From Thermoplasmata archaeon (lineage in GTDB: Archaea; Thermoplasmatota; Thermoplasmata; Thermoplasmatales; GCA-001856825), in the NCBI GenBank assembly GCA_021797855.1, contig JAJZYX010000007.1, positions 1 to 49,557 on the forward strand: a DNA stretch of 49,557 bases, written 5' to 3'. Every line of letters begins with the position of its first letter. Positions within the stretch are counted from its first letter, which is position 1. The notes under the pieces were generated by a model. The model saw nothing but the letters and a program-made list of their open reading frames with translations. It made no database searches and was not told where the DNA came from. A program made the translations under genes and the position numbers. Below, one piece after another: positions 2 through 44,633 of the stretch.

Positions 2-2647
2 AAGGAATTAATCTCAGATTATGACCAAATAAAGAAATCAGGCGAAATCAAGCATAAAAACGAAGCTGAAACCAGAGACAGTTTCATAAATCCTTTATTC
101 AAAGCTCTAGGATGGAATACGGAAAACAGGTTAAATAAAACCGACTCAGTAACCCCTGAGGAAAAAATCTCAAAAAAGAGGGTAGATTATGGATTCAGGA
201 TTAACGGAATACCTAAATTTTTCCTTGAAGCCAAATCACTGAAAGAAGATGATATTCAGAACAATCCAAAATACGTCACACAAGCAATTGACTACGCATG
301 GATGAAGTCTTGTTCATGGGCGATACTCACAAATTTTGAAACATTAGCAGTTTACAATGCAGACTGGAAATCCTCTAATCTGTACGGAAATCTGTTATTT
401 ATTCTGCATCCCAATGATTTTCTAACTGACAATAGATTCAAGATGCTGTCAAAAGCAGGATTTGAGAGAAATGAACTAGACAAGGAAGCACTAAGGTATG
501 GCAAAAAACAAATGAAAAATAAGATTGATAAACAGCTCTTGCTAGATATGATAAGATTCAGGGAAATTCTCTCAAAGGACATTGTTAGAAACAATCAGGA
601 TAAGCATCTCACTCAGGATGATATAGACGAATCAGTCCAGAGGATACTAGACCGTCTCATCTTCATAAGAAACGCTGAAGACAGAGGGCTAGAAGAGAAT
701 CAGTTACAATCCAATGTCAGGCAATGGTATTCAAGAGGAAAAGGTCATCTTCTGAAGGAAATATCAAGGATTTATGCCGATTACGATAAGAACTATAACA
801 GCAAGCTCTTTGCTCACCATTTGTGCGATGACCTTTACATAGAGAATGAAGCACTTCAAGATGTCATAGAAGGTCTTAATCATTCCGAGGACAACTCTTA
901 CAGATACGATTTCTCTATCATTGAATCAGATGTTTTGGGAAACATATATGAACAGTATCTAGGCAATATCCTCAAATCAACGCCTAAAAGGGCAAAACTT
1001 GAGGAATCCAAGACTCATAGGAAAGAGCAAGGCATCTACTATACGCCTTCTTACATTGTTGATTATATCGTCAAAAATACAGTTGGAGAATTCATTAAGA
1101 CCCATACACCAGAAGAAATTAAAAAAGTAAGAATCTTAGACCCTGCTTGTGGTTCTGGTAGTTTCCTTATTAAAGCCTATAAAGAGCTAGAGAATTATTG
1201 GTTACATAATTCCGATTTTGCTCAAACCACATTGGACAGCGAGGAATTCTATTCAAAGAAGGTAGAAATTCTCAAGAATAACATATTTGGCATTGACCTA
1301 GACCCAAAAGCTGTTGAAATAGCCCAGTTAAACCTATTATTGCAGATATCTGAAAGGAAACAGAGATTGCCTATACTTCAAAATAACATAAAAGTTGGAA
1401 ACAGCTTGATTGATGACCCTTCCATATCTGATAGGGCTTTCAAATGGGAAGAGGAATTTTCAGAGATTATGAAAGAAGGTGGATTTGACATTGTGATAGG
1501 GAATCCGCCTTATGGTGCTGAATTAAGCAAGATTTTAAAGGAATTTTTGACAAAAAAGTTTGAAACAGACCGAACAGGGAATTCTGCGTCTTATTTTATA
1601 TGGAACTCCATTAATAATCTGAAACTAACTGGCATATTTGCGATGATAGTGCCAAAGCAATTAACCTATATCACGAATTGGCAAGGAACAAGAAGCTTGT
1701 TGCTTAACAACGGAATTTCACAGGTAATTGATGTGTCCGAAGCCTTTGGAGATGTAGAACTTGAACAAGTTATAGTGATTGCAAATAAAACTGTCAAGAC
1801 TGATGATAAAGTGGTCGTAGGATTTTCAAATAAGAATACTTTTGAAATTAGGTCTATACGTCCAAAATGGTTTTCAGAAAATAGGTTCCCCTTATGGATT
1901 ACTCAAGATAATGAGTCAATATTTGAAAAAATACTTGAGAATGCCGTACCTTTGTCCTCAATAGCGAAATTAAACTGGGGAGGAATGGTAGCCAAATTTC
2001 TTACAACAAACAAATCTATTGACACTATTCCTTGCATACGAGGAAGAGATGTTCAAAGATATCGATTCGAAGTGAATTGGTATATCCCCAAAAAAGACAT
2101 CATTCAGTCTTATTACGTAAAAGGTGAAAAGATACTGTGTCAGAGAATAGTTTCAAGATTTGGGGAGAAACTTGTTTCGAATTATAGAAATGCGAGAATA
2201 GTTTGCACTTATACAAATGATGATTATTATGCTGATAAAACTGTCACCTTAGTATGGAATTCCAGTATAAACCTAATGTATCTGACAGGTCTTCTCAATT
2301 CCAAGCTTATCAGTTGGTTTGCACACAGGTACTTATACAACAGGTCTCAGCTTACTATGGAATTTATGTACGATTATGCGAAAAATTTCCCAATACGCAT
2401 AAGTATACCTCCTAATCTGGCAGAGCAGGTCACAGTCAGGGTTGAAAAAATCACATCAATTTTGTCTTCAATTGAAATTAATAGGGAATTCAATTCAGAT
2501 AGGGTCAATGAAGCATTGAAACTTGCAGAAAAACTGAGCAAGGAAATAGACCAAACAATATATGAAATATATGGCTTGACCCAGAAGGAAATTTCTATTG
2601 TGGAAAATGATTTTGCCTATTGGCCACTCACAAGCCTAAAGATGTAA
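2..2647 (+). CDS. Single-chain restriction-modification enzyme (nuclease plus N6-adenine methyltransferase), 5' truncated
   Basis: The reading frame is open from the left edge, so the start lies outside the window; the first ATG (302) is internal because the sequence before it is clearly coding. Visible residues 62-78 form a PD-(D/E)xK nuclease core (D62, E76, K78 in a V-D-Y ... L-E-A-K arrangement). The methyltransferase part has a GIYYTP motif, SAM motif I DPACGSGSF near visible residue 380 and the catalytic NPPY at about 501. The rest resembles a TaqI/Eco57I-type target-recognition region. Known relatives cut and methylate DNA with one polypeptide (type IIG-like) or act in larger complexes. 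No separate specificity subunit or helicase is visible to the right. The gene is A+T-rich compared with the ribosomal genes beyond 2.9 kb, which suggests transfer. The general class is secure; the recognition site and exact type are unknown. Confidence 0.88.
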   Translation, partial: KELISDYDQIKKSGEIKHKNEAETRDSFINPLFKALGWNTENRLNKTDSVTPEEKISKKRVDYGFRINGIPKFFLEAKSLKEDDIQNNPKYVTQAIDYAWMKSCSWAILTNFETLAVYNADWKSSNLYGNLLFILHPNDFLTDNRFKMLSKAGFERNELDKEALRYGKKQMKNKIDKQLLLDMIRFREILSKDIVRNNQDKHLTQDDIDESVQRILDRLIFIRNAEDRGLEENQLQSNVRQWYSRGKGHLLKEISRIYADYDKNYNSKLFAHHLCDDLYIENEALQDVIEGLNHSEDNSYRYDFSIIESDVLGNIYEQYLGNILKSTPKRAKLEESKTHRKEQGIYYTPSYIVDYIVKNTVGEFIKTHTPEEIKKVRILDPACGSGSFLIKAYKELENYWLHNSDFAQTTLDSEEFYSKKVEILKNNIFGIDLDPKAVEIAQLNLLLQISERKQRLPILQNNIKVGNSLIDDPSISDRAFKWEEEFSEIMKEGGFDIVIGNPPYGAELSKILKEFLTKKFETDRTGNSASYFIWNSINNLKLTGIFAMIVPKQLTYITNWQGTRSLLLNNGISQVIDVSEAFGDVELEQVIVIANKTVKTDDKVVVGFSNKNTFEIRSIRPKWFSENRFPLWITQDNESIFEKILENAVPLSSIAKLNWGGMVAKFLTTNKSIDTIPCIRGRDVQRYRFEVNWYIPKKDIIQSYYVKGEKILCQRIVSRFGEKLVSNYRNARIVCTYTNDDYYADKTVTLVWNSSINLMYLTGLLNSKLISWFAHRYLYNRSQLTMEFMYDYAKNFPIRISIPPNLAEQVTVRVEKITSILSSIEINREFNSDRVNEALKLAEKLSKEIDQTIYEIYGLTQKEISIVENDFAYWPLTSLKM

Positions 2648-43263: not shown

Positions 43264-44271
43264 ATGAGGTCTCTGTTGAACGATTATTCTCTCTCAAACT
43301 ATGATTTCAATCTTCCGAGGGAGTTGATAAGACAGGTTCCTCCAGACGAGAGGACGGACTGCAGGCTGATGGTCCTAGAAAAGGAGAGGATAACCCACAC
43401 GGAGTTTCCGAAGATCCTGGACATCCTGGAGAAGGGGGATCTCTTGATACTTAACAAGACGAGGGTAAGGAGGTCCCTTGTATACGGATCGAAGACTACA
43501 GGTGGAAAACTGGAGATAAATTTCCTGAGGAAGGAGAAGGAAGGATTCATTGCACTGATAAAGGGACGGATCAGGGAAGGGGAAGAGATTTACGTTGGGG
43601 GGAAGAATGTGAGGGTGACAACCAATCAGGAAGGTTTCCGGGTGATAGAAGGGAATCTGGATTGGGATTTCATTGAGGGAATTGGTCACCTTCCTTTGCC
43701 ACCGTACGTCAAGGAGAGAAGAGATTTCCCATACTATCAGAATGAGGTGGGGGATACAACAGGATCAATCGCAGCTCCAACCGCGAGTCTCCACTTCAGC
43801 AAGAGTCTCCTAGATTCACTGATCAAGAAAGGGGTGAAGGTAAAGTATGTCCTGCTGGAGGTTGGGTATGGGACTTATAAGGAGATCAAGGACGACTGCA
43901 TCAGAAAACACGTTGTGGATGAAGAGGAAATCGAGGTACCTGGAGATGTGGTATCTGAGATAGAAGGGGCAAAAGGGAAAGTTGTGGCCGTTGGAACGAC
44001 AGTGGTCAGATCCCTTGAGACATCCTCATACCCAGGAAGACTGATACCATACAAGGGACTGACGAGAATATTCATATACCCTGGATGGAAGTTCAATTCC
44101 AACCTGACACACCTTGTAACAAATTTCCATATCCCCAGGAGCTCCCTTCTCTCTCTTGTGTATGCTTTCGGCGGGGAAGAGAGGATAAAAACCGCATACA
44201 AGGAGGCGATATCTAAGAGATATTATTTCTACAGCCTCGGTGACGCAATGCTTATGGATAGGGCACCTTAA
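43264..44271 (+). CDS. queA: QueA-like S-adenosylmethionine:tRNA ribosyltransferase-isomerase
   Basis: The 335-residue protein is collinear with bacterial QueA: N-terminal F-N-L-P-R-E-L-I-R-Q-V-P, G-D-L-L-I-L-N-K-T-R-V, T-G-G-K-L-E-I-N, G-H-L-P-L-P-P-Y, A-A-P-T-A-S-L-H-F, V-G-Y-G-T, G-T-T-V-V-R-S-L-E, I-Y-P-G and the C-terminal G-D-A-M-L. In bacteria the enzyme adds an epoxycyclopentane from SAM to preQ1 in the tRNA anticodon. Archaea usually make archaeosine at position 15 and lack this step, so the role here is open. GTG 43261 or a downstream TTG are alternative starts. It overlaps pfdB by 4 bases, convergent. Confidence 0.9.
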   Translation: MRSLLNDYSLSNYDFNLPRELIRQVPPDERTDCRLMVLEKERITHTEFPKILDILEKGDLLILNKTRVRRSLVYGSKTTGGKLEINFLRKEKEGFIALIKGRIREGEEIYVGGKNVRVTTNQEGFRVIEGNLDWDFIEGIGHLPLPPYVKERRDFPYYQNEVGDTTGSIAAPTASLHFSKSLLDSLIKKGVKVKYVLLEVGYGTYKEIKDDCIRKHVVDEEEIEVPGDVVSEIEGAKGKVVAVGTTVVRSLETSSYPGRLIPYKGLTRIFIYPGWKFNSNLTHLVTNFHIPRSSLLSLVYAFGGEERIKTAYKEAISKRYYFYSLGDAMLMDRAP

Positions 44272-44633
44272 TTTTTAGAATTCCCTTTCTGGTAGAGCTT
44301 GTTGATCTCGTCAGAAATGCTCTTTAGCTTTGCGTTCAGCTGATTAACTTGCTCCTTTATGGACTTCAGCCTCATTTCTGAGATCTCAACATCCTCCTCG
44401 ATTTCTTTTTTGAAAGATTCTACATCCTTCACCTTTACTAGTATTGCGCCCACTTCCCTGTAGATCTCGTCGTCTTCCTTGGACTTATTTAGGTATTCAA
44501 GCGTTTTCTTGTCCTCTCTCGCCTTCACTTCATACTGATATTGCTGCGCAAGGAGGGTTTCCAGCTGCTTTTGTAGGGTCTCTGCCTGCTTAACCTGATC
44601 TTGTAGGTACGGCCCAAGATTTAGATCTACCAT
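44268..44633 (-). CDS. pfdB: Prefoldin beta subunit
   Basis: The 121-residue protein is a long coiled-coil pair flanking a short beta hairpin (Y-R-E-V-G-A-I-L-V-K-V), the archaeal prefoldin beta plan. Four beta subunits join two alpha subunits in a jellyfish-shaped co-chaperone that passes unfolded proteins to the thermosome. The alpha gene is not in the window. It is convergent with queA. Confidence 0.95.
   Translation of the reverse strand: MVDLNLGPYLQDQVKQAETLQKQLETLLAQQYQYEVKAREDKKTLEYLNKSKEDDEIYREVGAILVKVKDVESFKKEIEEDVEISEMRLKSIKEQVNQLNAKLKSISDEINKLYQKGNSKN

What the first reader, a model, noticed from the sequence alone, without database searches (positions are those of the whole stretch)
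43264..44271. Complete QueA homologue in an archaeal genome
All QueA blocks are present and in order, so it is not a remnant. Bacterial QueA works on preQ1 at anticodon position 34; archaea are known for archaeosine at position 15 made by ArcTGT/ArcS and related enzymes. Either this archaeon makes a queuosine-like anticodon base (from transfer), or the enzyme has a new substrate such as a deazaguanine derivative on another tRNA site.
Basis: partly seen in the sequence, partly recalled or inferred. Interest (0 to 1): 0.58.

Follow-up and report, generated by a model that had tools for sequence, protein, structure and literature searches.

The report
Archaeal queuosine pathway gene, QueA
This is an intact gene for a tRNA-modifying enzyme known from bacteria, and close relatives of this archaeon carry the other enzymes needed to make the wobble base queuosine, which archaea are usually said not to make.

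Summary
The ORF is real: window 43264-44271 (+) encodes a full-length QueA (Pfam 318 bits; above NCBIfam TIGR00113's cut-off, slightly below a second model's). It keeps all 26 residues invariant in 44 other QueA rows and occurs in 14 of 15 genomes of its archaeal family, the I-plasma group of Thermoplasmatales.

It is not a lone enzyme. The window's half-complete genome also has a bacterial-type, preQ1-pocket TGT, a QueF and a QueC. Relatives add QueG (14 of 15). In I-plasma, QueA, QueG, TGT, QueF and QueC sit on one 568-kb contig, and all four GUN tRNAs have U33-G34-U35. Among 78 genomes tested, 39 of 40 with canonical QueA have a bacterial-type TGT, against 0 of 38 without.

Best explanation: ordinary QueA chemistry in queuosine-34 synthesis, beside arcTGT. 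Trees join QueA and TGT with same-order archaea, so recent bacterial transfer is not supported. A queuosine pathway in other archaea is in print (PMC8204110). Q itself was not measured. A separate QueA-like family, paired with an SDR gene in archaea lacking that TGT, is the stranger side-finding.

The parts
43264..44271 (+). queA: SAM:tRNA ribosyltransferase-isomerase, full length
   Evidence: PF02547 318 bits; TIGR00113 over cut-off; 26 of 26 invariant residues kept
43266..43270 (+). GAGGT, possible ribosome-binding site for a TTG start at 43276
   Evidence: read from the sequence; inference
43276..43278 (+). TTG, probable true start codon, matching the I-plasma start
   Evidence: alignment, pLDDT under 50 for residues 1-5; inference
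44268..44633 (-). prefoldin-type gene, convergent neighbour; synteny marker that fixes the locus as archaeal
   Evidence: PF01920; same neighbour in 10 of 10 distinct family loci

Best explanation
The gene encodes a working, orthodox QueA. In this archaeal family preQ0 (QueC and upstream enzymes) is reduced to preQ1 by QueF. A bacterial-type TGT exchanges G34 for preQ1 in the four GUN tRNAs. QueA then moves the ribosyl part of S-adenosylmethionine onto preQ1-34, giving epoxyqueuosine, and QueG reduces that to queuosine. A separate arcTGT uses preQ0 at position 15 for archaeosine. Shown here: the genes, their family assignments, conserved catalytic and pocket residues, co-occurrence, and target tRNAs. 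Inferred: every reaction, and Q in the tRNA. The pathway looks old in this archaeal order rather than newly imported. In this family QueG stands where related families have QueH.
For: QueA over the TIGR00113 cut-off in 14 of 15 family genomes; 26 of 26 invariant residues kept in 10 family rows. TGT of the window's genome over TIGR00430's cut-off (312.9 vs 306.75 bits), against 104 bits to arcTGT model TIGR00432, whose cut-off is 350. Its D89, D143, C145, Q187, G214, E219, D264 and zinc ligands C302/C304/C307/H333 (E. coli numbering; roles recalled) are kept in 6 of 6 family rows; I-plasma arcTGT has F and M at C145 and E219. QueF over TIGR03139's cut-off, with EFTSICPKTG and ELKSLKLY or a close variant (motif roles recalled). 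QueG over TIGR00276's cut-off in 14 of 15. In I-plasma five pathway genes lie on contig C4, 567,734 bases, the length of ATMD01000004.1. Co-occurrence over 78 genomes: bacterial-type TGT 39 of 40 canonical-QueA genomes vs 0 of 38 others, QueH or QueG 36 of 40 vs 0 of 38, QueF 27 of 40 vs 0 of 38 (tests, which ignore shared ancestry). tRNA-Asn, Asp, His and Tyr with U33-G34-U35 in I-plasma. Trees.
Against: No chemistry was measured. The window's own genome is 52% complete and no QueG was found in it. NF001140, a second QueA model, is missed by 14 bits. Eleven positions conserved in at least 88% of other QueA rows differ in this family, among them H206E, R67L and R333Y in E. coli numbering, and the family sits on long branches (0.84 in QueA, 1.16 in TGT), so a shifted product is possible. 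QueF was not found over cut-off in 13 of 40 canonical-QueA genomes, so not every lineage has the textbook set. I did not search for QueD, QueE or FolE.
Confidence: 0.88

Rival explanations
1. Altered product: the family's QueA still acts on the TGT product at position 34 but makes a queuosine variant, or the pathway stops at epoxyqueuosine in some members.
For: Eleven otherwise conserved positions changed in the family; long branches in both QueA and TGT; QueG instead of the QueH of relatives.
Against: All 26 invariant residues kept; TGT preQ1 pocket kept; QueG present in 14 of 15 family genomes.
Confidence: 0.07
2. QueA acts on another site or another deazaguanine, for instance at position 15 together with arcTGT.
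For: ArcTGT is in all 5 of 5 family genomes at 89% completeness or more that were searched. A divergent QueA-like clade elsewhere in the phylum occurs with arcTGT only.
Against: Canonical QueA tracks the bacterial-type TGT, 39 of 40 vs 0 of 38. The window's protein is not in the QueA-like clade (100/99 support).
Confidence: 0.03
3. Recent bacterial transfer or a contig mix-up.
For: QueA is classed as a bacterial invention in an older survey (PMC1282579, passages).
Against: Same archaeal neighbour in 10 of 10 family loci; trees group it with same-order archaea; 14 of 15 family genomes have it. One QueA-positive genome, G332, does look like contamination: its QueA falls with bacteria and it has no bacterial-type TGT.
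Confidence: 0.02

Closest known systems
Bacterial QueA (TIGR00113; structures 1vky, 1yy3, 1wdi)
   Same: Full-length match, invariant residues, top four fold hits are the QueA structures
   Different: 35-40% identity to ten bacterial rows; 11 family-specific substitutions at conserved sites; not beside tgt as in E. coli or Magnetococcus
Queuosine pathway reported in DPANN and Methanosarcinales archaea (PMC8204110, passages seen: QueA, QueH-like, Tgt; 34 archaeal genomes)
   Same: QueA with a bacterial-type TGT in archaea
   Different: Here QueF and QueG (not QueH) are present, genes are scattered, and arcTGT coexists. Whether its supplement lists Thermoplasmatota I could not see
Queuosine genes of other Thermoplasmatota (families f2, f4, f20, f22 and others)
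   Same: f2 and f4 are nearest in both trees; canonical QueA plus bacterial-type TGT
   Different: QueH in 31 of the 78 genomes, none of them in this family, where this family has QueG; in several, queA and tgt are adjacent
QueA-like clade of f3 and f5 Thermoplasmatota
   Same: PF02547 family
   Different: Three of three scanned are below the TIGR00113 cut-off; only 12 of the 26 invariant residues shared by all seven QueA-like rows; no bacterial-type TGT; next to an SDR gene

Membership tests
QueA | Full-length match over the curated cut-off of TIGR00113 | tested here: met
   293.2 vs 267.45 bits
QueA | Match over the cut-off of the second equivalog model NF001140 | tested here: not met
   309.7 vs 324 bits; a narrow miss, while TIGR00113 and Pfam passed
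QueA | Residues invariant in other QueA rows | tested here: met
   26 of 26 in all 10 family rows, against 44 other rows
QueA | QueA two-domain fold | tested here: met
   AF2 model pLDDT 85.9, pTM 0.85; best four PDB hits are all QueA, TM 0.56-0.68 with rmsd near 9, so the domains may be set at another angle
QueA | SAM-dependent epoxyqueuosine formation on preQ1-tRNA | not testable with these tools
   needs an enzyme assay
Queuosine-34 pathway | preQ1-type TGT for position 34 | tested here: met
   TIGR00430 over cut-off, pocket and zinc residues kept
Queuosine-34 pathway | preQ1 supply by QueF | tested here: met
   6 of 6 family genomes given; TIGR03139 over cut-off for the window's genome
Queuosine-34 pathway | Epoxyqueuosine reductase QueG or QueH | tested here: met
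   QueG in 14 of 15 family genomes, not found in the window's 52%-complete genome
Queuosine-34 pathway | tRNAs with U33-G34-U35 | tested here: met
   Asn, Asp, His, Tyr in I-plasma
Queuosine-34 pathway | Q nucleoside present in tRNA | not testable with these tools
   needs mass spectrometry
QueA-like clade with SDR | Placement in that clade; SDR neighbour | tested here: not met
   Window protein outside the clade; neighbours are a prefoldin-type gene and a tRNA-Val gene

The most novel reading that the evidence does not exclude
A whole archaeal family puts two different 7-deazaguanines on its tRNAs (archaeosine in the D-loop, a queuosine-type base at the wobble position), and its fast-evolving QueA/TGT pair, with QueG standing in for QueH, makes a queuosine variant not seen in bacteria.
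Probability: 0.08. Interest if true: 0.75.

Novelty: new member of a known kind. Interest (0 to 1): 0.45.

Why it matters
[quoted passage not shown] A pathway from preQ0 reduction to QueG, kept in a whole archaeal family and with a QueH version in many other Thermoplasmatota, makes the opposite directly testable by LC-MS. Archaea with both TGT types would let one ask how two transglycosylases share preQ0 and preQ1 and keep to their own tRNA sites.

Tried and rejected
Considered and rejected: recent bacterial transfer, mix-up, and a position-15 substrate (see rivals). The first residue table mixed f11, f12 and f19 rows into 'f1' through a careless pattern; I discarded it and redid it. The PDB fold search gave only modest TM-scores, so I use it as support for the fold class only. 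ArcS: every genome (38 of 38) has some match, much of it cross-match to TGTs, and five family-f1 genomes score 210-217 bits, far below the 440 cut-off, so I make no firm claim about archaeosine completion. ARAGORN without the intron option missed the intron-bearing tRNA-Tyr; the run with the option found it. 'QueA-like', 'QueA homolog', 'QueA homologue', 'QueA family' as search terms gave one paper, of 2005. Searches for queuosine with Thermoplasmatota (2 papers), with Thermoplasma (12) and with archaeal terms listed, judging by titles and the passages read, only PMC8204110 as reporting queuosine genes in archaea; most listed papers were not opened, some lists were longer than what was shown, and subscription journals are missing.

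Rows dropped: one search found 82 QueA-family genomes of 389. I carried 58 of the 82 into the partner searches (40 canonical, 17 QueA-like, 1 fragment G331) plus 20 of the 307 without a match. The 24 left out are 23 canonical by score and one QueA-like by score (G043). The 20 negatives are the 20 printed by the tool and all come from family f3 of the same order, so the contrast is not drawn evenly from the phylum. The classification canonical / QueA-like is mine, from score and profile range; only 6 archaeal QueA-like proteins were aligned. The tests ignore relatedness. The ArcS search was given 38 of the 78 genomes.

Full report
THE OBSERVATION. The open frame 43264-44271 (+) is real and codes for a complete QueA. 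It passes the TIGR00113 cut-off and misses NF001140's by 14 bits. Codon changes against four relatives are mostly at third positions.

WHOSE GENOME. The window is contig C20 of an 886-kb, 52%-complete genome. A search of named genome contigs found seven relatives, all labelled Thermoplasmata, Thermoplasmatales or Thermoplasmatota, at 73-78% identity, including 'Thermoplasmatales archaeon I-plasma'. The convergent prefoldin-type gene next to queA recurs in 10 of 10 distinct family loci, and the I-plasma locus shares the MoaA/MoaD/MoaE/ThiF block (the I-plasma genes matched by eye). Of 15 genomes of the family, 14 have QueA over the TIGR00113 cut-off; the miss is a 78%-complete genome.

PARTNERS. 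The window's own genome also holds a TGT (C7:38333-39319), a QueF (C7:52461-52694) and a QueC (C7:65058-65690). The TGT passes TIGR00430, not the arcTGT model, and keeps the preQ1 pocket, catalytic and zinc residues in 6 of 6 family rows (residue roles recalled). The QueF passes TIGR03139 and carries the catalytic-cysteine stretch and an E-x-K-S-x-K-L-Y stretch (roles recalled), which argues for a reductase rather than the archaeosine amidinotransferase QueF-L. QueG is over cut-off in 14 of 15 family genomes and missing only from the half-complete window genome. QueH is in 0 of 6 family genomes tested. In I-plasma, QueA 164172, QueG 317820, TGT 472541, QueF 486061 and QueC 499425 are all on contig C4 of 567,734 bases, while arcTGT is on C1. 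I-plasma has tRNA-Asn(GUU), Asp(GUC), His(GUG) and Tyr(GUA, with an intron), each with U33-G34-U35.

CO-OCCURRENCE. PF02547 occurs in 82 of 389 genomes of the phylum. I tested 78 for partners; Tried and rejected tells how they were chosen. Bacterial-type TGT (344 bits or more): 39 of 40 canonical-QueA genomes, 0 of 38 others. The exception, G332, has a QueA that falls with bacterial rows and is probably contamination. QueH or QueG over cut-off: 36 of 40 versus 0 of 38; the four without are G000, G253, G017 and G332. QueF over cut-off: 27 of 40 versus 0 of 38. QueC-family matches are in 78 of 78, as expected where preQ0 is needed for archaeosine (in G332 only a weak one).

TREES. In the QueA tree of 61 rows, the 10 family rows form one clade (100/100) and join the 9 rows of two same-order families (99/98); the 10 bacterial rows lie elsewhere, together with G332 (97/98). 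In the TGT tree of 33 rows, 6 family rows join 3 same-order rows (95/97), with bacteria apart (100/100). Forks deeper in the phylum are unresolved, bacterial sampling is ten (QueA) and eight (TGT) plasmid-record rows, and DPANN and Methanosarcinales rows could not be had, so an old transfer is neither shown nor excluded. The family's branches are long.

WHERE THE FAMILY IS UNUSUAL. Eleven positions held by at least 88% of 44 other QueA rows differ in the family, among them A16R, R67L, G182S, H206E and R333Y in E. coli numbering. All 26 strictly invariant positions are kept. Only three QueA sequences turned up in the PDB search, and I know of no ligand-bound one (an older survey says a SAM complex was unavailable; PMC1282579, passage), so I cannot say whether the changes touch the active site. 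This is the main reason for keeping a changed product open.

WHAT IS KNOWN. PMC8204110 (passages seen) reports complete or partial queuosine pathway in 34 archaeal genomes, with QueA, QueH-like and Tgt, and names DPANN and Methanosarcinales. PMC5372724 (passage) says archaea cannot make Q; PMC13329287 of July 2026 (passage) still gives queuosine to Bacteria and Eukarya. PMC1282579 (passages) calls QueA bacterial only. So the idea of archaeal queuosine is in print; the QueF-TGT-QueA-QueG set in this family I did not find described in the searches listed under Tried and rejected.

SIDE-FINDING. The divergent PF02547 proteins of families f3 and f5 belong to another clade (100/99), share only 12 of the 26 invariant residues, live in genomes without bacterial-type TGT, QueF, QueH or QueG over cut-off, and in 6 of 6 loci examined lie directly behind a short-chain dehydrogenase gene (similarity, Pfam for five of the six, sequences). 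Three loci also have a SufR-like regulator nearby. A more distant relative is on a Streptococcus salivarius plasmid beside thymidylate synthase and PqqD-family genes. These may transfer SAM ribose to something other than preQ1-tRNA; nothing here tests that.

VERDICT. A well-supported, orthodox QueA in an archaeal queuosine pathway: ordinary enzyme, less ordinary owner.

Noticed in passing
L050 7971-9625, L051 8195-9893, L052 8891-10659, L053 7395-9707, L054 7331-9055, L059 7362-9036: QueA-like proteins outside the QueA clade sit directly behind an SDR oxidoreductase gene in 6 of 6 loci, in archaea with no bacterial-type TGT, QueF, QueH or QueG over cut-off. Possible second SAM-ribose transferase system of unknown product.
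   Followed up: partly
L052 10656-11414, L053 7268-7945, L059 6653-7315: A SufR-like winged-helix regulator lies near the QueA-like/SDR pair in these three loci (the L053 copy by similarity to L052 only).
   Followed up: no
L130 2992-7029: Streptococcus salivarius plasmid: QueA-like gene beside a thymidylate synthase, an AAA ATPase, hypothetical proteins and a PqqD-family gene; looks like a biosynthetic cluster.
   Followed up: no
G332:C39 6072-7124 (L009, L057): QueA groups with bacteria and the genome has no bacterial-type TGT or QueH; the 9.8-kb contig is probably bacterial contamination.
   Followed up: partly
G331:C20 73707-73913: QueA-family fragment with an inner TAG stop in a genome without bacterial-type TGT; possible decayed gene.
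   Followed up: no
window 2-2647: Open frame of 881 aa running off the contig start, resembling by eye the 893-aa restriction-modification-like protein that in I-plasma sits next to queA (L042 9803-12484).
   Followed up: no
G000:C7 38333-65690: tgt, queF and queC lie 13-14 kb apart in the window's genome and at similar spacing in I-plasma, G329 and G370; loose linkage of pathway genes.
   Followed up: no
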